Below, in pieces: positions 38,173-51,962 of a DNA stretch of 51,962 nt (positions are counted from its first letter, which is position 1; every line of letters starts with the position of its first letter). The translations under genes and the position numbers were made by a program. The notes beneath the pieces were generated by a model. That model searched no databases and was not told the DNA's origin. It saw nothing but the letters and a program-made list of their open reading frames with translations. This DNA comes from Candidatus Zixiibacteriota bacterium (GTDB lineage: Bacteria; Zixibacteria; MSB-5A5; GN15; JAAZOE01): NCBI GenBank assembly GCA_036480375.1, contig JAZGGI010000044.1, positions 1-51,962 on the forward strand, given 5' to 3'.

Positions 38173-38670
38173 ATGGGGCTGACCGCTAAACAAAGAATCA
38201 TCAACGCTTATGAGAATCTTCAGGCGTTTGAAGAAGAACTGGCTCTCTATTATGAGGGAGCGATAAAAAAGTGCGGCGAATTGGCTGAATTCTGGGAGAG
38301 CGCGTCATTTCTCAAAAAGACAAGGGCCAATCTCTATGCCAATTTGATTGAGGACGCGGGCCCCAATTGGAGATATTATCAACTCGACCGGGGAGTTTCC
38401 GGTTCATTTATTAATCTCATCAACAAAATAAAAGCCGAAAATAATCGCTCCGACAACCGGATTCTTTCATTGAGTTCGATAGGACGCTTTGCTTACGAAG
38501 TCGAAATTGCGCCCATCTCGACCAAGCTGTTTCCGGTAATTACCGGGACTAATCCCACATTTGGAACAATAAACCTGATTCTTGAAGAAATTCAGCATCG
38601 ACAGGTTCGTCTCATTAAGGGTTTGCTGGACAGCAATAAACAAAGTTCCGAATACAGCCTGGCCAAATAA
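38173..38670 (+). CDS. Uncharacterised helical protein, ferritin-like appearance
   Basis: The 165-residue product is not recognised with certainty. Two long helices (QAFEEELALYYEGAIKKC; EFWESASFLKKTRANLY) and a C-terminal helix with EEIQHRQVRLIKGLL recall the four-helix bundles of rubrerythrin/ferritin-like proteins, with E-x-x-H as a possible metal ligand pair. The other pairs are not clear. There is no strong ribosome site. Its position after a bacilliredoxin-like gene allows a redox role, but this is a guess. It is the last ordinary chromosomal gene before the att-like array. Confidence 0.6.
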   Translation: MGLTAKQRIINAYENLQAFEEELALYYEGAIKKCGELAEFWESASFLKKTRANLYANLIEDAGPNWRYYQLDRGVSGSFINLINKIKAENNRSDNRILSLSSIGRFAYEVEIAPISTKLFPVITGTNPTFGTINLILEEIQHRQVRLIKGLLDSNKQSSEYSLAK

Positions 38671-38806
38671 TTCCCGCTTTTTTGTTAATTCCTTTTTATA
38701 AAATTGAATACCATCTGTTCCGGCAAAGTGATAATGTCATATTTTTAGCAAAATAGAAATGTCCTCATGAGAGGCTATAATAGGTTCCCAAAAGTCAGGG
38801 AGGATT

Positions 38807-38935
38807 ATGGCCGGCGAGGATATTATCGGGATGAGTTTGAGGGAGTTGGGGAGGTTGAAGGTAGTTCATATTAAGACAAAGCTTCGGGAAAAACTAATAA
38901 AGATTGGAGAGGAAGCTGGTATTGAAAAAAACTGA
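38807..38935 (+). pseudogene. Transposase N-terminal relic (ISNCY-like) joined to integrase sequence
   Basis: A 42-codon frame begins with a segment resembling the start of ISNCY-type transposases (DIIGMSLRELGRLKVVH). From about residue 20 it continues as tyrosine-integrase text (LREKLIKIGEEAGIEK) until a stop at 38933. The transposase body is missing. The joint appears to be a deletion product between two mobile-element genes. Assignment of the transposase part is from pattern memory and moderate. Confidence 0.55.
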
Positions 38936-39105
38936 CAACTCTCCATTCTCCTTGTCACACGTTTGCCAGTCAGCTTGTGATGAACGGAGTTGATTTACCG
39001 ACAGTACAGAAGCTCATGGGGCATTCTGATATACAGACCACTATGATATATGCGCACCTTGCTCCGGATCACTTGGCCGATGCGGTGAATAAGCTGGAGT
39101 TCTGA
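38866..39105 (+). pseudogene. Tyrosine recombinase (integrase) C-terminal relic
   Basis: After a frameshift near 38930, the frame through 38956-39105 encodes the integrase box II region. It has the usual H-x-x-R position written as a degenerate CHTFASQL, then LPTVQKLMGHS with the third catalytic histidine, and the nucleophilic tyrosine in TTMIYAHL. The N-terminal and core-binding domains are gone. The stop codon lies 15 bp before the first tRNA-derived att-like sequence, the normal place for an integrase gene beside its attachment site. It cannot be functional. Confidence 0.85.
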
Positions 39106-39120
39106 TTTGAAATGACCGTC

Positions 39121-39258
39121 AGGCTCATAACCCGAAGGTCAGGGGTTCAAATCCCCTCCCCGCTACCAAATTTAAGCCCCTGAAGTCCAACAGCTTCGGG
39201 GATTTTGTTTTGAGTGGGATTTCCTTCAGATACCGGATTTTCTAACAATTTTCTAACA
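39121..39258 (+). repeat. att-like site 0: tRNA(CAT) 3' half, hairpin and TTCTAACA pair
   Basis: Bases 39121-39168 form the anticodon loop (CTCATAA), the 3' anticodon strand, a perfect T arm (AGGGG-TTCAAAT-CCCCT) and the acceptor 3' strand ending CCA. The 5' half is absent: the left neighbour is integrase relic. A GC hairpin with T-rich tail follows (39177-39106+95 region, stem CCCCTGAAG/CTTCGGGG). Then two TTCTAACA motifs begin at 39240 and 39251. This copy has the most tRNA-like sequence. The TTCTAACA pair is shared with site A, giving an interval without cargo. Confidence 0.8.
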
Positions 39259-39412
39259 TAATTAGCTAAAACTATAGATAATAAGAGAAAACACCAGACA
39301 AAAGGCTCAAGCTAAGTTGTTGCTATTATTGCCTCTTAGTGTCTGGTGCTTTCTACTGTTTGGACTTCTGCACAGGCTCATAATCCGAAGGTCACGGATT
39401 CATTCTATCCCC
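39240..39412 (+). repeat. att-like site A: TTCTAACA pair, palindrome, degraded tRNA half
   Basis: A TTCTAACA pair (39240 and 39251) is followed by the conserved 110-bp arm with CACCAGACA/TGTCTGGTG as an imperfect long hairpin. The tRNA anticodon region starts at 39374, 116 bp after the second motif. The tRNA half is mutated (CATAATCCG) and breaks off near 39412. Neither the right-hand hairpin nor the right TTCTAACA pair is present. The cargo gene that follows ends inside it. Confidence 0.8.
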
Positions 39413-40350
39413 TTTTCTATATAATCCTGAAGTTCATTTTCTGCCTTTTTTATTGTTTTAGGAGAGAAGAGGTTCTCAATACGCAAAGGCGGTGCTTCCT
39501 TGGCTATCTCTTCAGCGACATTGAGTAAAGCGACCTCATCATACTGGTGCCAATAATATATATATATAAGGCATCGCTTGAGATCAATGATGTAGGAATA
39601 AAGCGTATTTCCCAAGCCGCTCTCTATATGTGTTGCCTTTGCAATATACTTAAAATAATCTAAAGTAAGATTCTCTTCGGAGTTTATCTCCCTCAACATT
39701 TTGTCCGCCCGCAGATACCTCCAGCAAGGATAGCCATCGCTAAATGTATTCTCTAAATTAGCAACATTGAAATTGGTCGATAATAAGTACACATCTCCTT
39801 CTAACTTTCCTGTAAAAGCGAGCTCGCCATCCAGGCCGGCGCTCATAACAACCGCGTCGCCAGTTGCATCGGCTAGGTGTATTTGATAGCTAATAGATCC
39901 TCCCCAATTGTACATTGTGGCAAAGGTAATTGCCTCTTTCACAGTAGCGCAGTTTTCCTGAATCTTCCTCATAATTGCGCCGCGATTCGGAAGTTCAGGA
40001 TGATCATTTAGTTTTGCCTCCGGCAGGGCATTATAGTCAAAGGCTAGACCTTTTTCATTGACTCCACCCTGTGGATTATGGTTTTCAAAACCAAAGTACA
40101 CTCCTCCGTAGGTCGTATCACTCCGCGGTCTGATCCAATAATATAATCCAATCTTCTTGTAATCTTCATTATTCCCAAACAAAGCAGTATTCCCGTATGA
40201 GGCAGAGAATATGGTACAAGAGCCAGGTACTAGTGGCAATTCATCGGAAATATCATTGACATTACAGGACTCCTGAGCATGAATACTGAAAGAACACAAA
40301 AACGTAATCGTTATGATTACGATCACAAGATGCGTTTTATTGCACTTCAT
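39400..40350 (-). CDS. Secreted C45/choloylglycine-hydrolase-like Ntn amide hydrolase
   Basis: The 316-residue protein has a signal peptide ending SIHAQ. The N-terminal nucleophile family pattern appears at GSCTIFSASYGNTALFGNNEDY, with Cys45 as likely nucleophile after processing and N-E-D replacing the usual R-N-x-D. GGVNEKGLAFDYN and LLSTNFN are further family blocks. Such enzymes hydrolyse linear amides (penicillin V, bile salts, N-acyl compounds); the substrate here is unknown. It is the sole gene of the first filled cassette. Its stop codon (39400-39402) lies in the degraded tRNA half of site A. Confidence 0.82.
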   Translation of the reverse strand: MKCNKTHLVIVIITITFLCSFSIHAQESCNVNDISDELPLVPGSCTIFSASYGNTALFGNNEDYKKIGLYYWIRPRSDTTYGGVYFGFENHNPQGGVNEKGLAFDYNALPEAKLNDHPELPNRGAIMRKIQENCATVKEAITFATMYNWGGSISYQIHLADATGDAVVMSAGLDGELAFTGKLEGDVYLLSTNFNVANLENTFSDGYPCWRYLRADKMLREINSEENLTLDYFKYIAKATHIESGLGNTLYSYIIDLKRCLIYIYYWHQYDEVALLNVAEEIAKEAPPLRIENLFSPKTIKKAENELQDYIEKGIE

Positions 40351-40635
40351 TATATAACCCTCCGTATAATATATTGCGATGGTTTTTCATAATAGCATAC
40401 AACGCCGTTTTTTCACAGCTATCAGATAATGTAAGTTCATTCTGAAAGAACCATTTGTTTTGATTAGTAATCATATGGTTAATGATACGGGAGATAAATC
40501 AAATAAGTTCGAATTTAAAATTCTGAAAATGGCAATTGATCCCTTGGAGCTCTTACGTGTCAGAAATAACAATGTTGAATTGCAGCTTCTTCCTCTTAAT
40601 TTTCAATGTAGATGACCGAAAATACATACACCTCT

Positions 40636-40923
40636 TTCTAACATTTTTCTAACATAATTAGCCAAACCACCAGATAATAAGAGAAAACACCAGACAAAAG
40701 GCTCAAGCTAAGTTGTTGCTATTATTGCCTATTAGTGTCTGGTGCTTTCTACTGTTTGGACTTCTGTACAGGCTCATAACCCGAAGCACATGTGATGTGG
40801 TTGTCAGGGGTTCAAATCCTGCTCCCGCTACCAAATTTAAGCCCCTGAAGTTCAATAACTTCGGGGGCTTCTTTTTTTCGGGGAAAACCTTCAGAAACCG
40901 GAATTTCTAACAGTTTTCTAACA
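40636..40923 (+). repeat. att-like site B (complete arm-core-arm copy)
   Basis: TTCTAACA motifs begin at 40636 and 40647; the hairpin arm CACCAGACA (40688) / TGTCTGGTG (40736) follows. The tRNA anticodon loop and 3' half cover 40770-40833 and end in CCA. A terminator-like hairpin AAGCCCCTGAAG/CTTCGGGGGCTT plus T7 (40839-40878) comes next, and TTCTAACA motifs begin at 40905 and 40916. Compared with site 0 the tRNA half has a 16-bp insert that folds as CACAT-GTG-ATGTG, like a long variable arm. The gap 40351-40635 before it shows no gene. Confidence 0.85.
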
Positions 40924-41001
40924 AAACTTCCAGATTACTGACCAATCATAATCCACTAACGATCAATAAGTTAATGCTCGTTCTTGGTTCCCGTTTCGAT
41001 C

Positions 41002-44000
41002 TCAAAACCTTACAATCACACCTCCGTGGGCATGAATAAACTTGATATTATCGTCAAAGGTCTGGTGATAATCAACTCCGATCTCGAGCGTAATCATCCG
41101 ATTGACTTCGTGATTGAGCCCGGCGCCGACATTGAAACCGAACTCGTTGTCACCAATATCGGGTAAATAATATCCGAGACCGCCGCCGATATAATACGAC
41201 CAGGGCGGCATCGGCAACAATCGATACGGCTGATAATACCGTCCGTTAACCGAAATATTAATTATATAGTTATCATCATACAAGGCGCTTTTGGCTTTGA
41301 AATCATTTTTACCGACAAATCCCATAACGGCTATTTGCGGTGTAAACCAATAGCCGGCATCAAGCATGAAGTTTATACCCGGGTCATACGCATTGGCAAA
41401 ACCACCGGTCGGTACCGCCGTTCCGGTATGGAGACTGAGGCTGATTTTTTTGAATAGTATTGGACCCCATGGTTCCGGATCGTCACCATCGATAATTCCA
41501 TCTCCATCGGCATCCTTGTCCGCATCATTTCTGTGACCGTCGTTATCAATATCTCCCAGAGGTTCATTGCCATCTAGAATACCGTCACCATCACAATCCG
41601 GATCATAAATGCAAAGAATACCGTTTCCATTAATATCTCCTTGAACCTCATCTTCATCACGTCTTCCGTCATTATCTTGATCGTAAGTTCGTGGTAATGA
41701 TATTTGGATATCATCAACATATGCTAAAGCCGGACCGTCGCAATCGCTGCCAGGATATTCTGCTGAAACACCCCAACTACCTCCTTGGGCAACGACATAA
41801 AAATCGGAATAGCATCCGAATTCATCGGTAACCACAGTACGGTATATGGGATACCCGGAAGGATCTTCATAACGAATAATAATTTCTTCATATGGACGAG
41901 GCGGATTGGTACACCCCTGAATATTGATAATCTCACAAGTATCACGGCCTACGGGATCATGCACTACGGCCGCCAAGGATTTAAGGATTTTATAATTGCA
42001 TTCTTGTGTTTGAGCGCCCAGAGTAATTTCGGTTCTATTTCTCAAATCAACCTGAGCTGTCCCACCGCCGACTGGAATAAGAGTGTGACCTCTGACCATC
42101 CAACTGGTAACTTCAAATCTATGTTCGGTACAAACCGGAGCATCAATGGGCGGGGTGATTTGTAGAATGCAGCTTATTCGTTCTTTGCCGTTGAGATGGG
42201 CCTTTTTCGGGGTCAAGACCGAAGTCCATCCATTCGGAACGCCTTCCACACGGAAATAAAACAGTTCGCGAGTATCTTCAGGATTGGTAAAATTAAATCG
42301 ATATGTTACACTTTCATAGGGGCTGGCCTGAGTACTGGGAACCTCATTCAGATTTTGTTGAGCTCGGTTGTTATTCGTATTGACATCATTAAACACATTC
42401 GGAATAGTTACTTCAACACAGGAGTGAGCTTTGATTTTGCCCGTGCTCGGATCATAATCAGCCGCGGGCGTCCACTCGACATAATCGACAATAGGCGTGC
42501 TTCCGGTTGCAAACTGTGGGAAATATACTTCGTCAACGTCAACATTAAAGTCTGCTGAGCCGCCGGCGGTATGATATGGTTCGGACACTTTGGCATAAAG
42601 ATAAAAGTCATAGGCGTCTCCCGGACCGGGGTTATGAATTCTATAATAAATTCGATTGGTTTCCCCTGTCACCGGATTATCGCCGCGATCGACCGGAGTT
42701 CGGCCGTTATCCTCATCAAAACCGTCTTTCTGGGAATCAATCCAAATATCAGGGGATGTATAACTGGGATCGCCGACGGTAATACTAACATCATTATCGG
42801 TTTCCGGCGGATCATAGTCAATATCAATGTTGCGGTCGGCCCCACCGGTACCGTTATTGACGGTAATGATCAATCCTCGTCCAGTGACGGTGTAAGATTC
42901 GCCAATAGCCAATTCCGCATCGGTAAGGGTCGTGGTGCCGGGCTCGTTATCCCTGATTATAACCGGACCTTCACCTTGGCGAATATTTTCGTTGACATAA
43001 TAAATAAGAACACCTTCTGCGGGAAGTATTTCATCCGGATTACCGACGTGTGTGGATCGGGCCTCGACAAAATAAAAAACATCCTCATCTTCAATCGTTG
43101 TCGCTCCCTCAGTCATACCAATGGCAATCGCTTTGATATCCTGGCCATTTACATCTTGACCTGATACGTAATTGATGCCAATTGTTCGGTGTGTTTCTCC
43201 TCCAGAGGCGGGTCGGGGGACGTATTCAATATCTGAACCCTGACTGGTAATCCAAGTGGCCCGTTCTTTATTCCATGCCATACAATCGCTGCCGTTTATG
43301 GGAAAAGCCATATTATCCCATTCATCCACATGTGGCGTGGAAAAAGTAACGCCTGGATGGGGATATAAGTCGATTAATCCGAAATGATGCCCCAGAGCAT
43401 GCATAAAACGTTCGTCCGGATCGTTGTAAATGGAATTGACCGAAACCGAGATACGGCGGGTAAGCCCACCGGGAAGATCATAAGGCCACGGTCCGGTAGT
43501 AGCGTAGTCATCAGTAAAGTTTTGGTCGTTCAAGACAATTATCAAACGATCGATATCATCGTTGGTAGCTGCGGTTCCTTTATCAAAAGTGTTGGGATCA
43601 GCGGCGATTAATTCGTCAATAACATCCTGGGTCATCTCAATTAAGACATTACGGCTGGGATGATAATAGTGCGTGCTGGGTTGACTCAGGGATACCTCGG
43701 TATAATCAGGCTGAATATCAACCACGTCATAACTTATATCCTCGATATAGTTTTCAACATTGGTCATAATATTCTGAACGGTAGTCAGAGGCGGAGCCGC
43801 TCCCGCCATGATATCGCTGAGAGCGACTCTGACGACCAAAGTATTCTGGTCGCCAGTCGGAATCGGCGGTTCGGGAGTATCAGCTGAGGCAACCAAGGCA
43901 TAGCCCTGCCCAGGATTTCCCTGATTCACCGTGGGTGCGTCGATTTGTATGGTATATTCGCCAACCGGTGGGTTGGTTAATAAAACCTGTTCAACATTGT

Positions 44001-45957
44001 TAACATCATCTGCCGTGCCGCCGGTAGTCGACTGACCAGCAGCAAAATCATTACCCAAATATGTAATACCCGTGGGATCTATTATAGTCAGGTTTAAATC
44101 ATTCACATTAGGATTGGCACTTCCTGAGGATGCAGGCGGTTCAGTCCAAACCAGCGTCACTTTTAAGGGAGTAATATTATTAACAACCTCGATAGTATAA
44201 TTATGGGATTCACCGGTGTATAAACCAATGTTATTTCTAACATCCCAAACCCATACATTACGGTTGTCTCCGTCAAAATAGACCGAGTTTTCAAGTCTGA
44301 TCAGACCCCATCCTTCATCGTCGCTTGGATAGCCGGCGATTCCGATCATATTAATGGTGGAATTAAGAAGAGTAGCTTTAATAAGCGCTCCGGAGGGTGT
44401 GAAGGCATGATGGGGCTGTTTGGTTCCCGAAGGATACCAACCCTCTGTATAATATTGCCTGACCAATGCGGCGCAGGCGGCCGCAGCCGGGGTAGACCAA
44501 CTTGTGGCGCAAATAGGCGTTGGCCACCCATATATGTTTTGAGCTATCGTAATTGTGCAGTTTGTACCGTTTTGAGCAGAAGTAATAGCGCAACCGGGGG
44601 CAAAAAGATCAGGTTTACGGCGTCCGTCCGGAGCTGGTGTTGGCCCAGGATTTCCATCACCGAAATTCATCTCATTTGGATCTACATCACTGGCCCCCAC
44701 ACAGATTGCGTTTTTGGCTGTTCCCGGCGGACCTATATCCTCGCCGACATTGCCTGCAGAACCCAGGACTACATGATCTTCATTGTCCCAAATAAAACGA
44801 TCCACGTCTTCTGCTGTTTGATCGTATTGTGGAGTAGGTTCATCATGCCAGCTGTTAGTATGAATTCGAGCTCCATCATTTCTGGCCCCATAAAGCCGAG
44901 CCAGTACGGTTGGACTACCTCCTCCTCCACTTTCATCATAGGTCAATCGCGCGGCCCAGGCATTACCTCTATTAGCGCCCGTAGCGGAATTATTAGAGTC
45001 ATCGCCGAGTGCAATACCTGCCACAAAAGTTCCATGTGTTGCCCCGGAAGTGGTTATTGAGGTATGATAGCCCACTACTTTGCGATGATCCGGACGGACC
45101 GTGTTATCAGTCGGATCATCGAACATACAATGCGCAATATCAACGCGCGTATCCATTATGCCGATTATTTGACCTTCACCATGAATATCATGATCCCATA
45201 TAGGTGTCGTCCCAGGTGTTCCTGATTGTAATGTTCCGGCAGTATTACCGTTATCCAGGAAGCTTTCGGGAACTTCTTCTATCCATCTGACACCTGGAAT
45301 AATAGCAATCTGTAATAGATCGTCCGGTGATGGTAATTGAAAATTAATGCGAATTGGGCCATTGATGGCACGGTCATCCATGATTACTATATCATGGCCG
45401 CCCAAGCCTTGGATGGCTGTTTTCACGGCTGTCGTGTCGGCATCATCGAAAAGTTTGGCTCTTAACATCAAATCAGTCATGGCCCGCCTTTCCGGTGTGC
45501 GAAATTCTAATGTGCCTATACTTGGAGATATTCTATATGCCGGATGATAAGGACCGTTCCATCTGAAAAACTCAGTTTTTTTAAGACTGTCAATAGTTGC
45601 CGCCTCTATTTTTTCCAGATAAGCAAAACCGGAAATGTATTGATCCATCTTAAGGCCGAATTTCTCTTTCAGCATTTCGACCTGCTGACGCGTTAACGGC
45701 CGTTTGAATTGTATTATCTGATATGAGGGACCCATTGCCGGCAGTTCCAATCTCAACTCCCGTGGGATAGTTGGGATGCTGTCGAGAGGATCAAAAGTAA
45801 ATCCCTTCAGTTTAACTCTCAAGTCAAACCTTGTGCTATCTTGTGTCCAACCCAATGATGTAACTAAGATCATGCACAACAAGGTAGTTACGACAAGAAT
45901 CCATGGTGAAAACTTGAATTTCTTAACAAGTTTTCCCTTAGGTTTCCAGTGCTTCAT
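41002..45957 (-). CDS. Giant surface subtilase with M6-like domain, TSP3 repeats and C-terminal outer-membrane barrel
   Basis: The 1651-residue protein starts at ATG 45957 (GGAGGTG ahead; an in-frame start at 46008 is less supported). After a signal segment (about 17-38) and a propeptide-like region comes an S8 subtilase domain with Asp near 269 (IMDTRVD), His near 308 (ATHGTF) and Ser near 486 (CATSWSTP). A jelly-roll domain as in KP43-type subtilases follows. An M6-like zinc-protease domain near 853 reads HALGHHFGLIDLY, with alanine where the catalytic glutamate belongs. CARDB/Ig-like domains, calcium TSP3 repeats (about 1420-1485) and a barrel of about 160 residues ending in phenylalanine complete it. 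The barrel would anchor the protease at the cell surface. It lies within the B-to-C cassette. Confidence 0.9.
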   Translation of the reverse strand: MKHWKPKGKLVKKFKFSPWILVVTTLLCMILVTSLGWTQDSTRFDLRVKLKGFTFDPLDSIPTIPRELRLELPAMGPSYQIIQFKRPLTRQQVEMLKEKFGLKMDQYISGFAYLEKIEAATIDSLKKTEFFRWNGPYHPAYRISPSIGTLEFRTPERRAMTDLMLRAKLFDDADTTAVKTAIQGLGGHDIVIMDDRAINGPIRINFQLPSPDDLLQIAIIPGVRWIEEVPESFLDNGNTAGTLQSGTPGTTPIWDHDIHGEGQIIGIMDTRVDIAHCMFDDPTDNTVRPDHRKVVGYHTSITTSGATHGTFVAGIALGDDSNNSATGANRGNAWAARLTYDESGGGGSPTVLARLYGARNDGARIHTNSWHDEPTPQYDQTAEDVDRFIWDNEDHVVLGSAGNVGEDIGPPGTAKNAICVGASDVDPNEMNFGDGNPGPTPAPDGRRKPDLFAPGCAITSAQNGTNCTITIAQNIYGWPTPICATSWSTPAAAACAALVRQYYTEGWYPSGTKQPHHAFTPSGALIKATLLNSTINMIGIAGYPSDDEGWGLIRLENSVYFDGDNRNVWVWDVRNNIGLYTGESHNYTIEVVNNITPLKVTLVWTEPPASSGSANPNVNDLNLTIIDPTGITYLGNDFAAGQSTTGGTADDVNNVEQVLLTNPPVGEYTIQIDAPTVNQGNPGQGYALVASADTPEPPIPTGDQNTLVVRVALSDIMAGAAPPLTTVQNIMTNVENYIEDISYDVVDIQPDYTEVSLSQPSTHYYHPSRNVLIEMTQDVIDELIAADPNTFDKGTAATNDDIDRLIIVLNDQNFTDDYATTGPWPYDLPGGLTRRISVSVNSIYNDPDERFMHALGHHFGLIDLYPHPGVTFSTPHVDEWDNMAFPINGSDCMAWNKERATWITSQGSDIEYVPRPASGGETHRTIGINYVSGQDVNGQDIKAIAIGMTEGATTIEDEDVFYFVEARSTHVGNPDEILPAEGVLIYYVNENIRQGEGPVIIRDNEPGTTTLTDAELAIGESYTVTGRGLIITVNNGTGGADRNIDIDYDPPETDNDVSITVGDPSYTSPDIWIDSQKDGFDEDNGRTPVDRGDNPVTGETNRIYYRIHNPGPGDAYDFYLYAKVSEPYHTAGGSADFNVDVDEVYFPQFATGSTPIVDYVEWTPAADYDPSTGKIKAHSCVEVTIPNVFNDVNTNNNRAQQNLNEVPSTQASPYESVTYRFNFTNPEDTRELFYFRVEGVPNGWTSVLTPKKAHLNGKERISCILQITPPIDAPVCTEHRFEVTSWMVRGHTLIPVGGGTAQVDLRNRTEITLGAQTQECNYKILKSLAAVVHDPVGRDTCEIINIQGCTNPPRPYEEIIIRYEDPSGYPIYRTVVTDEFGCYSDFYVVAQGGSWGVSAEYPGSDCDGPALAYVDDIQISLPRTYDQDNDGRRDEDEVQGDINGNGILCIYDPDCDGDGILDGNEPLGDIDNDGHRNDADKDADGDGIIDGDDPEPWGPILFKKISLSLHTGTAVPTGGFANAYDPGINFMLDAGYWFTPQIAVMGFVGKNDFKAKSALYDDNYIINISVNGRYYQPYRLLPMPPWSYYIGGGLGYYLPDIGDNEFGFNVGAGLNHEVNRMITLEIGVDYHQTFDDNIKFIHAHGGVIVRF

Positions 45958-46150
45958 AAACACCTCCATTGTTACAGTTAATTTAGTTTCTGATTTCTCA
46001 ATTATCATTCCTCTTTGACAATCGTAATGTCAGGTCAATGATTGTTTAGTCACGATTTTATAAGGCTGTCTAACAATCCGTTTTGCCGCGGGTCGATTTG
46101 TTAATGAATGCCTAAAGATGCAAAAACACATCGTTATATAATGGCATACA

Positions 46151-46175
46151 GGGGTGACAGACTCTGGCAGTGGAA
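46151..46175. repeat. Recurring 25-bp motif, copy 1
   Basis: GGGGTGACAGACTCTGGCAG followed by TGGAA recurs in diverged form at 47312 and 48688. It resembles sequences found beside IS200-like (Y1) or IS3 transposase genes. Here it overlaps the end of an IS3-type relic. Confidence 0.45.
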
Positions 46176-46288
46176 CGCAGCTTATCAATCCATACCTCCT
46201 TGATTAAAGGTTTTAATTTCGGTTATCCGTTTACAAATCGTTCCGGGTGTTGGGCATATGCGGCATCCATGTCTCCTGCCTTTTCCGC
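46171..46288 (-). pseudogene. IS3-family transposase C-terminal relic
   Basis: Minus-strand translation gives AYAQHPERFVNG, a stop, then PKLKPL and EVWIDK. This matches the C-terminal end of the IS3-family OrfB integrase core, which usually reads HPERFVNG, then proline-rich text, then VWINKP. At least one in-frame stop and upstream stops mark it as dead. The surrounding gap 45958-46409 holds nothing else recognisable. Confidence 0.7.
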
Positions 46289-46409
46289 AAAATTTTATCA
46301 GTATTGCCGGTATGCACATCCCGCGGCGTTATCATGGCCACACCAGACACTGTGTTCCCCGTAAGTCTTTGCTATTATTAATGCATCTAAAAATGGGGGC
46401 TGAGCAATT

Positions 46410-47123
46410 TTACCACATCCGGCGGACCCTTGATTTTTCTCTATCGATTTTCTTACCTGTCAGACGTTCCCATAACTTGATACCGGCCAGTTTTTCAACA
46501 AGTGTGGTCGGAACCAAGAACGTATCTAATGATTGATTAGATTCTTCGTTTGGCATTACAAATGACCACATATGCAAAACACCTCTGTTATTCTCAGTCA
46601 AAACAGACTTAAAATATGCGTTTGGTATTGGTATGGTTACTTCATTTGGGTCATCAGCGCCTATACTTTCGACGGGTTGATCAAAATAAAAAATGGGACC
46701 ACAAATAACATAAGTTTCCAATATTTTTGACTTCGCATCTAAACCCCGGACCTTAGATTCCAATTCTTTCCAGATGTTTCTGTTGAATTGAGGTCTCTGA
46801 GGTGACATATTGGATAATAGGAATGTTTCGCTATTTTGTAATTCTGTTTCTCTCTGATTAGCACTGGCGACAAGATGCCCACGATCATAGCCGGAGCCAG
46901 CATAATCAACAAGATCGGCGCGAAACATCTCCGGAATTCGATAGTCTGAACGAAAGTTATCCAAACGATCCAGGCCGGGATTATCAGGATCTACGATCTC
47001 CAGGGCCCACTTTGCTTGACGAAAATAATATGAATACCCCAGCACATAATACCTGTTAAACATTATTTGGTCTGCTGCCGGCATTCCATATCTGGTTTCG
47101 CGTTTCAAATTAGGTAGGTTCAT
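46410..47123 (-). CDS. DNA/RNA non-specific endonuclease (NUC1/EndA family)
   Basis: The 237-residue enzyme carries the family's DRGH motif (YDRGHLVASAN, catalytic His83) and the metal-binding NMSPQRPQFNRNIW segment with its conserved asparagines. A magnesium-dependent beta-beta-alpha nuclease degrading both DNA and RNA is expected. Most relatives are exported, but no signal peptide precedes the domain here, and AGGAG fixes the ATG. Either it stays inside, which would need an inhibitor, or it leaves by an unknown route. It is cargo in the B-to-C cassette between an IS relic and a CARDB lipoprotein. Confidence 0.88.
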   Translation of the reverse strand: MNLPNLKRETRYGMPAADQIMFNRYYVLGYSYYFRQAKWALEIVDPDNPGLDRLDNFRSDYRIPEMFRADLVDYAGSGYDRGHLVASANQRETELQNSETFLLSNMSPQRPQFNRNIWKELESKVRGLDAKSKILETYVICGPIFYFDQPVESIGADDPNEVTIPIPNAYFKSVLTENNRGVLHMWSFVMPNEESNQSLDTFLVPTTLVEKLAGIKLWERLTGKKIDREKSRVRRMW

Positions 47124-47311
47124 TTATCTTCTCCTTTCGAGGTTTTTTCTAATATAACGTGATACAAGACAACTCGTTTTCACGGTAATTTGACTTACCG
47201 AAGAGTCAACAGCAAAAGCCTCACGAGTAGACTGCAAACCTCACCGCATACCTGCTTTTCCTCCTGAAGCATATAGAACCGCTGTAATCCCAATCATCAA
47301 AATAAGAAACA

Positions 47312-47335
47312 CACCTGTCAGATTCCGGCAGTGGA
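47312..47335. repeat. Recurring 25-bp motif, copy 2
   Basis: CACCTGTCAGATTCCGGCAG followed by TGGA matches copy 1 at most positions from TGACAG onwards. It sits between the CARDB lipoprotein stop and the nuclease start. The rest of this 235-bp gap holds no clear gene. Confidence 0.4.
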
Positions 47336-47358
47336 AATAGAAAATAAGTCAGTCTTAT

Positions 47359-47781
47359 TTAGTTATCAGTAGTATAGTATTTATCATCTTCGTTGCTTTC
47401 TTTCACCATTTTTTTTGCATCAACTCTCACTACCAAATCGCATGTTGTAAGAGTAGATAGATCCAAGCCGCGGGGAGATGAAAAACTACTAAATGGAATG
47501 GAACCTGAATTCCATGTATCTCCTTTTGCAATGGCAGGAACTTCAGCAGAATATTGAGTTTGAGGTTTTTGGGCATCATTCGCATCTATTGCATTAATTT
47601 CTAAATAGGTCAAATGATTTCCTGCATCTTTATTACCAATATTTTTTAGTGTAACGATTACCATTTGTGATGAACAATCAATTTTAGTTTCATCTTCTAC
47701 TACTATTAGATTGGGTAGTTCGGGAGCACAACCAAATATACCCAAAAAACAGAACGTTATCAATAGAGTTTATACTTTCAT
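47359..47781 (-). pseudogene. CARDB-domain lipoprotein with an in-frame stop at codon 4
   Basis: A good start (ATG 47781, AAGGA ahead) is followed by AAA GTA and then TAA at codon 4. After that the frame stays open for 134 codons with a clear lipobox (FLGIFGC) and one CARDB-like Ig domain (LIVVEDETKIDCSSQMV, then VTLKNIGNKDAGNH). Removing the stop gives a normal lipoprotein signal (MKV-x-TLLITFCFLGIFGC). Restart at TTG 47763 would leave an unusually short, uncharged signal. It is either a fresh pseudogene, a sequence error (TAT to TAA), or translated from the TTG. CARDB domains bind proteins or carbohydrates at the cell surface. Confidence 0.7.
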
Positions 47782-47824
47782 ATATTATTCCTTATGTTAT
47801 TATATTTAATATAGTAGAGTGTTG

Positions 47825-48625
47825 TTATACAATAAGTCCATAAGCTTCTGTAAAAGCTTTTTTAGCGTAGGCGTTTGAGGCATAAGCAAAGCCTTTATTC
47901 CCCCAATTAGTCCCCCAACTATTTCTTACAATAATATGTTTAGAAGTATAGCCAACTAAAGCAACTGCATGACCGCCTCTAACTGTATTAGGTTTATATA
48001 TTTTCAATTGTCCATTTGTTTGCGTTGCGTTATCCCATGTAGCATCAACTCCTAATCTAGTCAATATTGGTCCTACCAAAGCTAACCACATTTTCCAAGT
48101 AGTAAGATTTCTACCTAAATTATGATAACTCGTTATGCGTAATTTAGCCGCTCTGGAGAAAAATACAGCTGGTTTGAGCATTGATAATTTACCGTCCATT
48201 GGTAAGTCTTTTTCAAGTACACAGCCATAATTACGAGCTACTTTTAAAGCTAGTTTAGTTTGAGTCCCAGCTGTTTCAAGAAATGTTGTGGGGTAATTAG
48301 TAATTTCATCAGTTTCTTTATTAGCCATCCATATGAAACGAGGAGAAGGTTGAGCATTTTTTAAAAGTTTGCCATTTGTTATAAAGTGCCATCTAAGTAA
48401 ACCATCTGCAGTAGCGAAGCCGACACACGCACCTGTACTTCCTTGATTACGAATTTTCCACCAATCTTCTCTAAGATCTTTTGATGAAGGTATACTTGGT
48501 AAATCATCAACTAATCCTGATGAAACAGCATCTTGAAAAGTCCAGTCATCTTCAGGTTTAATTGAAGGAATACAGTTGAGAATAAAATTTTGATTTTTCA
48601 GAGTTTCTTTCTTAGACTTAACCAT
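47825..48625 (-). CDS. Papain-like (C1) cysteine peptidase
   Basis: The 266-residue protein has the C1 active-site blocks: oxyanion glutamine and nucleophile in NQGSTGACVGFA (Gln61, Cys67), histidine in GGHAVALVGY, and asparagine in VRNSWGTNWGNKGFAY. The usual second cysteine of the QGxCGSCW motif is threonine. The N-terminus (residues 1-45) lacks a signal peptide and is short for an inhibitory propeptide. AGGAG supports ATG 48625 over a more distal start at 48697. Its AT-rich composition contrasts with the giant subtilase and suggests a separate origin. It is the promoter-proximal gene of the B-to-C cassette. Confidence 0.88.
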   Translation of the reverse strand: MVKSKKETLKNQNFILNCIPSIKPEDDWTFQDAVSSGLVDDLPSIPSSKDLREDWWKIRNQGSTGACVGFATADGLLRWHFITNGKLLKNAQPSPRFIWMANKETDEITNYPTTFLETAGTQTKLALKVARNYGCVLEKDLPMDGKLSMLKPAVFFSRAAKLRITSYHNLGRNLTTWKMWLALVGPILTRLGVDATWDNATQTNGQLKIYKPNTVRGGHAVALVGYTSKHIIVRNSWGTNWGNKGFAYASNAYAKKAFTEAYGLIV

Positions 48626-48687
48626 GGTACTTCTCCTTTTCAATTTCTTTATGCAATCATCAATGCTGTTTATTAAAATAGCAAATA

Positions 48688-48712
48688 GGGGTGACAAATA
48701 GTGTCAGTGTAA
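48688..48712. repeat. Recurring 25-bp motif, copy 3
   Basis: GGGGTGACAAATAGTGTCAG followed by TGTAA resembles copies 1 and 2. It contains an inverted pair TGACA...TGTCA typical of REP or IS200-like termini. It lies upstream of the papain-like gene. Confidence 0.4.
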
Positions 48713-48819
48713 ATAAAAATGATTCAGTTATTTTTATTAAATATTGCACAAATATTGTGCGAGCCCATTTGAACTTAGATACGAACAGTATGATTACTGT
48801 CTATCTTAATATACACCCT

Positions 48820-49107
48820 TTCTATCATTTTTCTAACATAATGAGCCAAAACAAGAGATAATAAGAGAAAACACCAGACAAAAGGCTCAAACTAAGTTGT
48901 GGCTGTAATTGCCTCTTAGTGTCTGGTGCTTTCTACTGTTTGGACTATTGAACAGGCTCATAACCCGAAGCACATGTGATGTGGTTGTCAGGGGTTCAAA
49001 TCCTGCTCCCGCTACCAAACTTAAGCCCCTGAAGTTTAACCACTTCGGGGGTTTCCTTTTGGGTGGGATTTCCTTCGAAAACCGGATTTTCTAACAGTTT
49101 TCTAATA
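48820..49107 (+). repeat. att-like site C (complete arm-core-arm copy)
   Basis: TTCTATCA (48820) and TTCTAACA (48831) form the left pair; the conserved hairpin arm follows. The tRNA anticodon loop and 3' half cover 48954-49017, with the same 16-bp variable-arm insert as site B. The hairpin CCCCTGAAG/CTTCGGGG comes next, then TTCTAACA (49089) and TTCTAATA (49100). Distances are the same as in site B: 116 bp from left pair to core and 135 bp from core to right pair. Confidence 0.85.
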
Positions 49108-49190
49108 AAATTTCACAAATACTGGTTCATGGTATAAAGAAAAGGACAGGTCAGCTTAACCTGTCCCTCTTAATCTTCTGGTCGAAAGTT

Positions 49191-51689
49191 CTATTTCAAG
49201 AATAACATCTTCTTCGTGTCAATAAAGTCACCCGACTGCAATCGATAGAGATAAACACCACTCGCCAGATGCGACGCGTTCCATTCAACTGAGTGATAGC
49301 CTGCTTCACACCCACGGTCAACGAGGGTTTCTACTCTCCGACCCAGCAGATTAAATATATCGATGCGAACATGCGCGGTCTGAGGCAGAGCAAAGCTAAT
49401 CCGAGTGGTCGGATTAAATGGGTTAGGATGATTTCCTAAAAGCGCCAGATTGATGTGTGCCTCACCCTCTTGTACTTGAGCTGGCATTTCTATGGCGCCC
49501 TTTGTCATGTATAAAACACAATCATACCCTTGAAGAGAGGTGCCGTCATTCAATTCAGCAGTTAATCTGACTTTTATCTCATCACGATACATTTTTATTC
49601 CAGTAGAATCATTTTGTGATGCCTTAACGCTGTTCTTAATCGCTTCAATAACATCCTGCCGATTGAATTTGATTGTAAGATCTTCATACCCATCAGCTGC
49701 TTCTTCAGTACAAGCACAACTGTCTTCTGTCTTATCGGAAGGTGTGGCAACATCTTCATAATCCCACCTGGTTGGACTGACACCGGCAAGAGAGATTGTT
49801 TCCGGATTAATATCAGCAATATCAAAATCTTCGGTTCCCAAAATAGCAACAGGCAAAACAGATTTAGCAGGTCCATTACCATTCCCATGATTCACTTTTG
49901 CGTTCAACGGATTAGGACAAGAACCAGGCTTGATATCAACATAAATATCTGTAAAAACAGGATCATCCGGATCGTCGCAATCCTCATTTCCCATCGCACA
50001 CGATGGCACAAAAGGTTCTTCATGAAACTCATAGCCTGAGAGATAACCGTCATTAGCGTTGACGGTGGCGTCAAAAGCTTTCCTCATAGGCATTGCAGCC
50101 GGGAAACCGCCTAAAGTGAAGAAGTTACTCTTCTCATCAAAATGCCATAAACCGACCAAACCGGACTCATCGCCGCGCAATGGATGATACATATCGGCCT
50201 GGATTTCACTCTGAGTTCTCGCCACCCCCCAAATCCGAACTTCATCTATCATGCCCCTAAAAAAATCTGATGGAGAAGAATCGTATTCCTGGCCAATACT
50301 GAATCTCGCGCCGTATGTCGGTCTGATAGTTGCCGTGAAGGTCAACTGCTCCTCGCCATTAACATACAAACAACCGTTATCGTTTTCATCGAGAGTCAGC
50401 GCTACATGATACCAATCGCCCGGCGGAAACTGATCGGAACCGCAAACGAAATCATTATCAGTGTCAAAATAGCAAAATGTATGTGAATCTCCGTCATAAT
50501 AGAGAAGATTGTAATTACCTCCTAATACATCATTTACTATTTTATTAAAAGCAAGTATCATTGATCTGGTATTACCTATTTGTTCGTCAGGATAAACCCA
50601 GGCCTCCATTGTTAAAACGCTATCGTAATCAGCCCTTCCGACGAGGTCATTAGATAGGTTGTTCGCTTCAACATAATCGTTAACTCCGTCAAGGACCAGA
50701 GCATTTCCGGGCCCGCTATTCGGTACCGCATATTCTTCTGATGTATAATCATACTGGTTCTTGTTAATCTCAAATGGAACTATCTTATACCGATAAATCT
50801 CGCCATTGACAACATTAGTATCCATATATGAATTAATCGAGGGCGGAAGAAACGGCAAATGCATTTTTATCATTTTACCGTCCCTATAAACTAAATATCC
50901 CAAAAATGGCGCGAAATGATCATCAAAATCAGGATCTTTACCGGAATAATTTGCCTGCTTCCAATTCAGTTCAACTTGCCCATCGGTTGCGTAAGCAGTC
51001 AATTCAGACACATGATATTTCCAGGCATCCATTTTCTCGTCATTATATGTATTAGGCGCTCCGCCAAATCGAATAACTTCAAAATCCCGCTGTGCGCTCT
51101 GCTTACCGTCAACCTTCTGACCATCCTCAACCGCAATCATATAGATCATCATATCAGTCATCAATCTGTTACAATCCCCTTTATCTGACCAACTATGAAT
51201 GTCGGGGTAAACATATCCATAAAACGGAATTCGAAATGGCAATATCGTATGATTCGTGTCCGGCTCCAGGTAATCCATCCGCATCATATCATAAAGCGCG
51301 TCATGTATCATGGATGAGCGGAAATTGAAGTAACTGTGCCCCCTCCCCGTAATTTTTGGATATGAGGGTCCGTCCCATCGGAATCCTTTTTTTACGGTTA
51401 GAATCCCGCCCTCTTCGATGCGAACAAAATCCCAATCACAGATTGGAAGACTATCTTTTGACCAATTGTAAAGAAAATCGCCAAGTCCCTTATACGGGTC
51501 TGGATACTTCATCGGATTAATAAAATACTCAGGCAGACTTATAGTGTAGTCCTTCTGTAACTCATATTTCTTTTCGCCAAATGGACGCCACTCATATTCG
51601 GTCCAATCTTTATAATGCTGAGCGCTGACAATATTACCTATCCCCAATAAAATTATAATGAACGCTAAACACAGGTGATGACTTTTCAT
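49191..51689 (-). CDS. Secreted LamG-domain protein with DUF1353-like N-terminus and T9SS-type C-terminal tail
   Basis: The 832-residue protein has a signal peptide (residues 1-23). An N-terminal domain contains GFRWDGPSYP and SSMIHDALYDMMR, resembling DUF1353 phage-associated proteins. A fibronectin-like stretch and a concanavalin/LamG domain (about 330-510; MEAWVYPDEQ, GDWYHVALTLDE, GMIDEVRIWGVART) follow. A calcium-like region with IDIKPGS-type text comes next, and a C-terminal sorting tail (about 755-832; NHPNPFNPTTRISFALP, then ASGVYLYRLQSG) ends it. This tail directs export by type IX secretion in Bacteroidota and is common in FCB phyla. Sole cargo of the C-to-D cassette; GGAGGT precedes the ATG. 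Confidence 0.88.
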   Translation of the reverse strand: MKSHHLCLAFIIILLGIGNIVSAQHYKDWTEYEWRPFGEKKYELQKDYTISLPEYFINPMKYPDPYKGLGDFLYNWSKDSLPICDWDFVRIEEGGILTVKKGFRWDGPSYPKITGRGHSYFNFRSSMIHDALYDMMRMDYLEPDTNHTILPFRIPFYGYVYPDIHSWSDKGDCNRLMTDMMIYMIAVEDGQKVDGKQSAQRDFEVIRFGGAPNTYNDEKMDAWKYHVSELTAYATDGQVELNWKQANYSGKDPDFDDHFAPFLGYLVYRDGKMIKMHLPFLPPSINSYMDTNVVNGEIYRYKIVPFEINKNQYDYTSEEYAVPNSGPGNALVLDGVNDYVEANNLSNDLVGRADYDSVLTMEAWVYPDEQIGNTRSMILAFNKIVNDVLGGNYNLLYYDGDSHTFCYFDTDNDFVCGSDQFPPGDWYHVALTLDENDNGCLYVNGEEQLTFTATIRPTYGARFSIGQEYDSSPSDFFRGMIDEVRIWGVARTQSEIQADMYHPLRGDESGLVGLWHFDEKSNFFTLGGFPAAMPMRKAFDATVNANDGYLSGYEFHEEPFVPSCAMGNEDCDDPDDPVFTDIYVDIKPGSCPNPLNAKVNHGNGNGPAKSVLPVAILGTEDFDIADINPETISLAGVSPTRWDYEDVATPSDKTEDSCACTEEAADGYEDLTIKFNRQDVIEAIKNSVKASQNDSTGIKMYRDEIKVRLTAELNDGTSLQGYDCVLYMTKGAIEMPAQVQEGEAHINLALLGNHPNPFNPTTRISFALPQTAHVRIDIFNLLGRRVETLVDRGCEAGYHSVEWNASHLASGVYLYRLQSGDFIDTKKMLFLK

Positions 51690-51815
51690 AATTACCTCCG
51701 ATAATTGTTAAAACCCTATTACTAAAAAATATAAACAATTTTGTCGATTTGCCCAGACAATTCTTGTTATAAAGGATATTGGAGATCACCTACTCCACGG
51801 CTTACATGCACCTCT

Positions 51816-51962
51816 GTCTAACATTTTTCTAACATAATTAGCCAAAACAGCAGAAAATAAGGGAAAACCGGCGGGGGCCGGATTTCTATTGGTCTGATTA
51901 TACTGCCATGGCCGCGTGTCTGGTGCTTTCTGTTGTTCGGACGTTTGAGCTGGCTCATAACC
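51816..51962 (+). repeat. att-like site D, cut by the window end
   Basis: GTCTAACA (51816) and TTCTAACA (51827) form the left pair. GTGTCTGGTGCTTTCTG is kept near 51917, but the middle of the arm differs from sites A-C. The core GGCTCATAACC begins at 51952 (117 bp after the second motif), and the window ends inside the tRNA half, so whether an intact tRNA or another cassette follows cannot be seen. Confidence 0.75.

What the first reader, a model, noticed from the sequence alone, without database searches (positions are those of the whole stretch)
39121..51962. Integron-like array of cargo cassettes separated by tRNA-derived attachment sites
Five copies of the anticodon-loop-to-3'-end half of a CAT-anticodon tRNA occur in the same orientation at 39121, 39374, 40770, 48954 and 51951. 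The sequence left of each copy is not a tRNA 5' half but a shared arm sequence (or integrase relic at the first). Cargo between copies is 0, 1, 4 and 1 genes, with no integrase in any. Tandem integration of elements at a tRNA leaves exactly such element-element junctions. The repeats are visible; the view that these are integrase-less cassettes captured serially by an integrase acting in trans is inference. I know of no named system with this layout.
Basis: partly seen in the sequence, partly recalled or inferred. Interest (0 to 1): 0.85.

Follow-up and report, generated by a model that had tools for sequence, protein, structure and literature searches.

The report
Integrase-less gene cassettes at tRNA-fMet sites
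This stretch of a Candidatus Zixiibacteriota genome is a row of small gene packets without their own integrase, each ending in the same 160-base attachment site built on the initiator tRNA gene; the same arrangement recurs across that uncultured phylum, where it lets bacteria stack varied genes in one hotspot.

Summary
The five tRNA-fMet half-copies are real. They belong to a family of about 17 sites in this genome, found in 58 of 132 Zixiibacteriota genomes. A site is an arm of two TCTAACA boxes, an inverted repeat of fixed span (57 bp) and a fixed 26-bp gap, then the anticodon stem-loop and 3' half of the initiator tRNA. In relatives the arrays lie directly downstream of the intact tRNA-fMet gene. 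Some relatives carry an intact tyrosine integrase beside that tRNA, in 26-27 kb mobilizable-type elements with the same ends. Of 48 mapped cassettes, 44 lack an integrase (median 3 kb). Related species differ by whole cassettes at this locus, and one 0.9-kb unit occurs core-to-core at two loci of the window's own genome. The window's array is not at the tRNA: its left edge is an integrase relic at a synteny break. Best reading: tandem, integrase-less satellite islands (CIME-type, in an additive island), moved by an integrase from a visiting helper element. Movement in trans is inferred, not shown. Close named relatives exist (Dehalococcoides ssrA islands, streptococcal CIMEs), so this is a new variant of a known kind, not an integron.

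The parts
38173..38670 (+). 165-aa chromosomal gene, last conserved gene left of the array
   Evidence: Order BrxC-165aa-283aa-211aa kept in G001, G003, G004; here the 283-aa orthologue is on contig C28, so synteny breaks at the array
38715..39141 (+). 427-bp left-edge segment: short ORF start fused to an integrase C-terminal relic, running into the core
   Evidence: 91% identical to C34:7041-7466, the left edge of another array in this genome
38923..39105 (+). integrase C-terminal relic (HTFASQ...GHSDIQTTMIYAHL), not full length
   Evidence: PF00589 46 bits, 1 in-frame stop; XerD-like fragment
39122..39168 (+). site 1: core GGCTCATAACCCGAAG plus tRNA-fMet 3' half
39239..39258 (+). arm with two TCTAACA boxes, serving as right arm of site 1 and left arm of site 2 (unit of 253 bp without a gene)
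39237..39390 (+). site 2: arm, inverted repeat, core
   Evidence: nhmmer E=1e-41; IR span 57, IR-to-core 26
39400..40350 (-). cargo: secreted AAT-family (penicillin acyltransferase-like) protein, 316 aa
   Evidence: PF03417
40627..40786 (+). site 3: arm, inverted repeat, core
   Evidence: nhmmer E=3e-46
40787..40833 (+). extra hairpin CACATGTGATGTG plus tRNA 3' half of site 3
40904..40923 (+). right (P') arm of site 3, two TCTAACA boxes
41002..46008 (-). cargo: 1668-aa subtilase with C-terminal barrel-like domain
   Evidence: PF00082, PF13505 just under its cut-off
46410..47123 (-). cargo: DNA/RNA non-specific endonuclease
   Evidence: PF01223
47359..47763 (-). cargo: CARDB-domain protein
   Evidence: PF07705
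47825..48697 (-). cargo: papain-family cysteine protease
   Evidence: PF00112
48813..48970 (+). site 4: arm, inverted repeat, core
   Evidence: nhmmer E=3e-43
48971..49017 (+). extra hairpin CACATGTGATGTG plus tRNA 3' half of site 4
49088..49107 (+). right (P') arm of site 4
49191..51689 (-). cargo: 832-aa laminin-G / Por secretion-tail protein
   Evidence: PF13385, PF18962
51808..51962 (+). site 5, cut by the contig end inside the core
   Evidence: last 127 bp identical to the end of C18; last 119 bp identical to the start of C15

Best explanation
A tandem array of integrase-less integrative islands (CIME-type cassettes). Each unit runs from one core to the next: [anticodon-loop core, usually tRNA 3' half + terminator, sometimes a right arm] - cargo of 1 to 7 genes - [left arm of two TCTAACA boxes, 57-bp inverted repeat, 26-bp gap, core]. 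Shown: the sites, their fixed geometry, their place downstream of tRNA-fMet in relatives, intact integrases there in elements with the same ends, cassette presence/absence between species, and core-to-core duplication of a unit. Inferred: the arms bind the integrase's N-terminal domain, strand exchange is in the anticodon loop, and the integrase of a visiting 26-27 kb mobilizable-type element inserts and excises cassettes in trans. The window's array is a displaced copy at a synteny break, probably immobile now because this genome lacks the family integrase.
For: Site family: 21 hits in the own genome, 46 of 60 relatives, 58 of 132 in the phylum. Rigid geometry: IR span 57 bp in 41 of 52 sites with an IR call, IR-to-core 26 bp in 40 of 41, arm-to-IR-end 108 bp in 35 of 43. 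Arrays start at intact tRNA-fMet with a conserved left flank and variable right side. Integrase with catalytic R/H/R/H/Y at +26 from the core in G041, G030, G028, G011; in G041 and G030 its element ends in arm + IR + core at 26-27 kb, with a TraG-like coupling protein and Replic_Relax in G041. G024 vs G015: same flanks, 18 kb vs 1.3 kb of cassettes between. C15:705-1622 = C34 unit, 91% over 919 bp core-to-core. G032 and G002 cassettes, different families, share 2.4 kb at 74%. 44 of 48 cassettes have no integrase.
Against: No excision, circle or transfer is seen; only assemblies, no reads. The window array lies away from any tRNA and its genome has no intact family integrase, so here it may be fossil. 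Some sites in closed genomes are solitary and far from tRNA-fMet (G044), not explained by insertion at the tRNA alone. The integrase model is poor overall (mean pLDDT 41), so arm binding rests on weak domain evidence.
Confidence: 0.72

Rival explanations
1. Fossil array: former autonomous elements that inserted in tandem, lost integrase and backbone by deletion, and are now simply inherited; they move, if ever, only together with an element inserted beside them (accretion in cis).
For: Degenerate cores and arms in some copies; broken integrases in G024 and relics in C44 and C34; CIMEs are defined as decayed elements.
Against: Integrase-less cassettes hold almost no backbone genes of the helper element: the only close match is one Fic protein, G045 vs G030 at 81%. 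Ends stay intact in over 40 sites. A unit is duplicated within one genome without an integrase beside either copy.
Confidence: 0.2
2. The sites spread by homologous recombination between repeats, which shuffles and duplicates cargo; site-specific recombination played a part only at the start.
For: An identical 119-bp site end sits on three contigs; the window array and C34 share a 427-bp left edge; synteny is broken at the window array.
Against: Boundaries fall at the core, not randomly in the 300-bp repeat; left flank and tRNA are preserved in many species while the right side changes.
Confidence: 0.05
3. A true integron with an unusual attC.
For: Array of cassettes each with a 3' site; integrase of the tyrosine family.
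Against: RYYYAAC...GTTRRRY pair in 0 of 54 sites; integron-integrase model 66 bits against a cut-off of 265; site is long, double-armed and tRNA-based.
Confidence: 0.01
4. A dispersed repeat (REP- or IS-like) unrelated to cargo ends.
For: Solitary partial copies on C33, C22 and C42 and in closed genomes.
Against: Presence/absence boundaries coincide with the sites at tRNA-fMet; integrase-bearing elements have the same ends.
Confidence: 0.02

Closest known systems
Dehalococcoides ssrA genomic islands (PMC3146451)
   Same: Tandem islands downstream of one RNA gene, bounded by repeats of its 3' end; many lack an integration module (15 there) and were proposed to be cis-mobilizable elements; rich in adaptive cargo; over a dozen repeats
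   Different: There the integrase is a serine recombinase and the target is tmRNA with a 20-bp repeat; here it is a tyrosine integrase, tRNA-fMet, and a 160-bp arm module with fixed geometry kept on integrase-less cassettes
CIMEs and microCIMEs of streptococcal ICEs/IMEs (PMC7563491)
   Same: Integrase-less units flanked by att sites, in tandem with elements that carry an integrase; classical CIMEs of 1.2-13 kb, gene-less microCIMEs of 130-220 bp (compare the 253-bp unit here)
   Different: There they are decayed ICE/IME relics beside their parent; here almost no backbone relics, cassettes outnumber integrase-bearing elements in the regions read, and arrays occur in genomes without the integrase
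Additive flexible genomic islands (Alteromonas, PMC4119200; Methylopumilus tRNA-Lys, PMC10872708)
   Same: Variable number of cassettes added at a conserved tRNA, repeats of the tRNA 3' end between them
   Different: Those papers, as read here, do not describe a conserved arm module or one site family across a phylum
Tycheposons (as described in PMC10872708)
   Same: Cargo elements at a tRNA (tRNA-Met included) with a tyrosine recombinase
   Different: Here most units have no recombinase
Integrons
   Same: Works like one in outline: array of small cassettes, each with its site at the 3' end, near an anchoring site
   Different: No attC pair, no IntI, site is a double-armed phage-type attachment site, cargo in either orientation

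Membership tests
CIME (cis-mobilizable element) | flanked by attachment sites of an integrative element | tested here: met
   Same arm, IR and core as the right end of integrase-bearing elements in G041 and G030
CIME (cis-mobilizable element) | no integrase or transfer genes | tested here: met
   44 of 48 cassettes lack an integrase; window cargo is secreted enzymes and binding-domain proteins
CIME (cis-mobilizable element) | derived from an ICE or IME by deletion | tested here: inconclusive
   Almost no backbone relics in integrase-less cargo
CIME (cis-mobilizable element) | moves by accretion with a functional element | not testable with these tools
   Needs strains or assays
Additive tRNA genomic island | cassettes vary in number at a conserved tRNA | tested here: met
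   tRNA-fMet locus of 44 genomes; G024 vs G015
Additive tRNA genomic island | the window's own array is at the tRNA | tested here: not met
   Left edge is a relic at a synteny break; the tRNA is on C18
Integron | IntI-type integrase | tested here: not met
   TIGR02249 65.9 bits, cut-off 265
Integron | attC sites with RYYYAAC / GTTRRRY boxes | tested here: not met
   0 of 54 sites
IME (helper element of G041) | own integrase | tested here: met
   PF00589 + PF14659, catalytic R/H/R/H/Y
IME (helper element of G041) | mobilization genes but no full conjugation apparatus | tested here: inconclusive
   Coupling-protein-like PF10412 and Replic_Relax PF13814; no mating-pore gene recognised among the eight genes scanned; relaxase function not tested
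Tycheposon | tRNA border plus tyrosine recombinase in the element | tested here: not met
   Recombinase missing from 44 of 48 units

The most novel reading that the evidence does not exclude
A phylum-wide gene-capture system of Zixiibacteriota: cassettes that never were autonomous elements, each carrying a standard attachment module, are collected at the initiator tRNA by an integrase that comes and goes on a mobilizable element, so that a satellite population far outnumbers its helper, a phage-type analogue of an integron.
Probability: 0.25. Interest if true: 0.75.

Novelty: new variant of a known kind. Interest (0 to 1): 0.55.

Why it matters
It marks a main gene-acquisition hotspot of an uncultured phylum and gives a sequence model that finds cassette ends in Zixiibacteriota genomes. 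It also offers a natural test of how integrase-less satellites arise and spread: cassettes share one attachment module, carry diverse cargo (kinases, FeoB, restriction and Fic proteins, proteases), and outnumber units with any integrase gene 44 to 4 in the regions examined (intact integrase in 2).

Tried and rejected
An early reading that the inverted repeat spans 57, 67 or 77 bp in helical steps was a fuzzy-match artefact; best-match scoring gives 57 bp in 41 of 52 sites. The idea that G115's array uses tRNA-Sec was dropped: its clearest site carries an fMet-type core. The idea that C4, C12 and C16 integrases belong here was dropped: they sit at tRNA-Leu genes. Search for the site or the integrase in phages, plasmids and viral contigs gave nothing close; an 82% match of 62 bp on an Azospirillum plasmid lies in the tRNA 3' half only. 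The integrase model was too poor for a fold search. A PADLOC scan failed on a coordinate error and was not repeated. Site tree: partly clustered by family, 15 label changes against a minimum of 5 and 23 shuffled; most forks weak, so transfer between families is suggested, not proved. Paper searches for Zixibacteria with integron, genomic island or mobile element found no description.

Full report
What is there. The window is the whole of contig C44 of a 3.59-Mb, 50-contig genome. Exact-pattern matches to the site in a collection of about 85,000 species genomes fall only on Candidatus Zixiibacteriota MAGs, so the window comes from that phylum. The five half-tRNA copies are at 39122, 39375, 40771, 48955 and 51952. 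No intact tRNA lies in the window; the target, an initiator tRNA-fMet, is intact at C18:62376-62452.

The site. Twenty-eight aligned sites give a module of about 160 bp: two TCTAACA boxes 11 bp apart, then an inverted repeat CACCAGACA...TGTCTGGTG, then TGTTYGGAC and the core GGCTCATAACCCGAAG. Spacings are nearly invariant: repeat span 57 bp (41 of 52), repeat end to core 26 bp (40 of 41), arm to repeat end 108 bp (35 of 43). Right of the core many sites continue with the tRNA 3' half, a terminator and a second pair of TCTAACA boxes at +120; others go straight into cargo. Window sites 3 and 4 thus have arms on both sides, like a complete attachment site.

The locus in relatives. In 44 genomes with a readable tRNA-fMet locus the left flank is often shared (families F0, F2, F3) while everything to the right differs. 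G041, G030, G028 and G011 hold an intact 428-436-aa tyrosine integrase whose 3' end lies at +26 from the core and overlaps the tRNA end and arm; G013 has a further intact relative. In G041 and G030 the element carrying it is 26-27 kb and ends in arm + repeat + core. The G041 element encodes a TraG/TrwB-like ATPase, a Replic_Relax protein, RuvC, a serine recombinase and ArdC, which suggests an integrative mobilizable element. Among 60 relatives, close members of this integrase (at least 60% identity) are found in only about ten, several cut or broken, and in neither the window's genome nor closed G044, while the site is in 46 of 60 and 58 of 132 in the phylum.

Cassettes. Forty-eight units were mapped between a tRNA or site and the next site; 44 have no integrase, median 2.97 kb, range 0.68-9.9 kb. 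Of 104 proteins in them, only one closely matches a helper-element gene, a Fic protein of G045 at 81% identity to G030. Cargo is diverse: Ser/Thr kinases, FeoB, an apolipoprotein acyltransferase-like protein, ferric reductase, restriction (Mrr) and Fic proteins, and in the window an acyltransferase-like enzyme, a subtilase, a nuclease, a papain-like protease and a lectin-domain protein. Genes point towards the tRNA side more often than away (73 to 31); all window cargo does.

Do repeats coincide with presence/absence? Yes. G024 and G015, one genus, share 4.9 kb left of the tRNA at 89% identity and a right flank at 80-87%; between lie 18 kb with an integrase element and four further cassettes in G024, and 1.3 kb with one cassette in G015. 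A cysteine-synthase-like gene (my reading of its sequence) follows the tRNA directly in G008 and G014 but lies beyond a 5.0-kb cassette in G025, with the switch at the core. Within the window's genome a 919-bp unit is 91% identical on C15 and C34 and begins and ends at cores, in different surroundings. A G032 cassette and a G002 cassette, from different families, share 2.4 kb at 74%.

The window's own array. It is not at the tRNA. Its left edge is a 427-bp segment, shared with the left edge of the C34 array, holding an integrase relic. In G001, G003 and G004 the 165-aa gene at 38173 is followed by a 283-aa gene; here that orthologue is on C28. So the array sits at a rearrangement. The contig ends inside site 5, in a 119-127-bp stretch shared exactly with C18 and C15.

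How it probably works. The integrase binds arm boxes with its N-terminal domain (only a weak Arm-DNA-bind hit in G030; the confident part of a poor model is three strands and a helix) and exchanges strands in the anticodon loop, as tRNA-targeting tyrosine integrases do (established knowledge). A cassette that keeps both ends can be a substrate without encoding the enzyme. The rarity of the integrase and the near absence of backbone relics favour service in trans by a transient helper; decay with accretion in cis remains the main rival (20%).

What is known. Tandem islands with integrase-less members at an RNA gene are described for Dehalococcoides ssrA, CIMEs and gene-less microCIMEs for streptococci, additive tRNA islands for Alteromonas and tycheposons as reported for Methylophilaceae. 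No paper found treats this in Zixiibacteriota. It works somewhat like an integron but fails two defining tests.

Noticed in passing
window 40787-40799 and 48971-48983; also L043, L044, L089, L090, L092, L096: Some sites carry a 16-nt insert between anticodon stem and T arm, a 5-bp hairpin plus GTT, with stems such as CACAT/ATGTG, CACCT/AGGTG and CACAC/GTGTG, which look like compensatory changes. No intact tRNA with this insert was found in the sequences held.
   Followed up: partly
L050 7217-8079, L051 5643-6777, L052 8685-9823 (contigs C16, C4, C12): Three related integrases each lie directly upstream (5') of a different tRNA-Leu gene (CAA, TAG, TAA) on the same strand, an unusual side for tRNA-targeting integrases.
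   Followed up: partly
G055 (closed, 95% complete, same genus as G041): No initiator tRNA-fMet 5' half was found with up to 3 mismatches, although close relatives have one.
   Followed up: no
L105 around G044:C1:2876843; L207, L208, L209: Solitary sites, some with a core, far from tRNA-fMet in closed genomes; how they got there is unexplained.
   Followed up: partly
tRNA-fMet loci of G022, G046, G038, G047, G056, G039, G002: MAG contigs end within about 400 bp downstream of the tRNA, as expected if populations vary there or repeats block assembly.
   Followed up: no
window 38715-38923: The segment before the integrase relic holds a short ORF (MAGEDIIGMSLRELGRLKVVHIKTKL...) that resembles a transposase N-terminus from memory; NCBIfam gave no hit.
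   Followed up: partly
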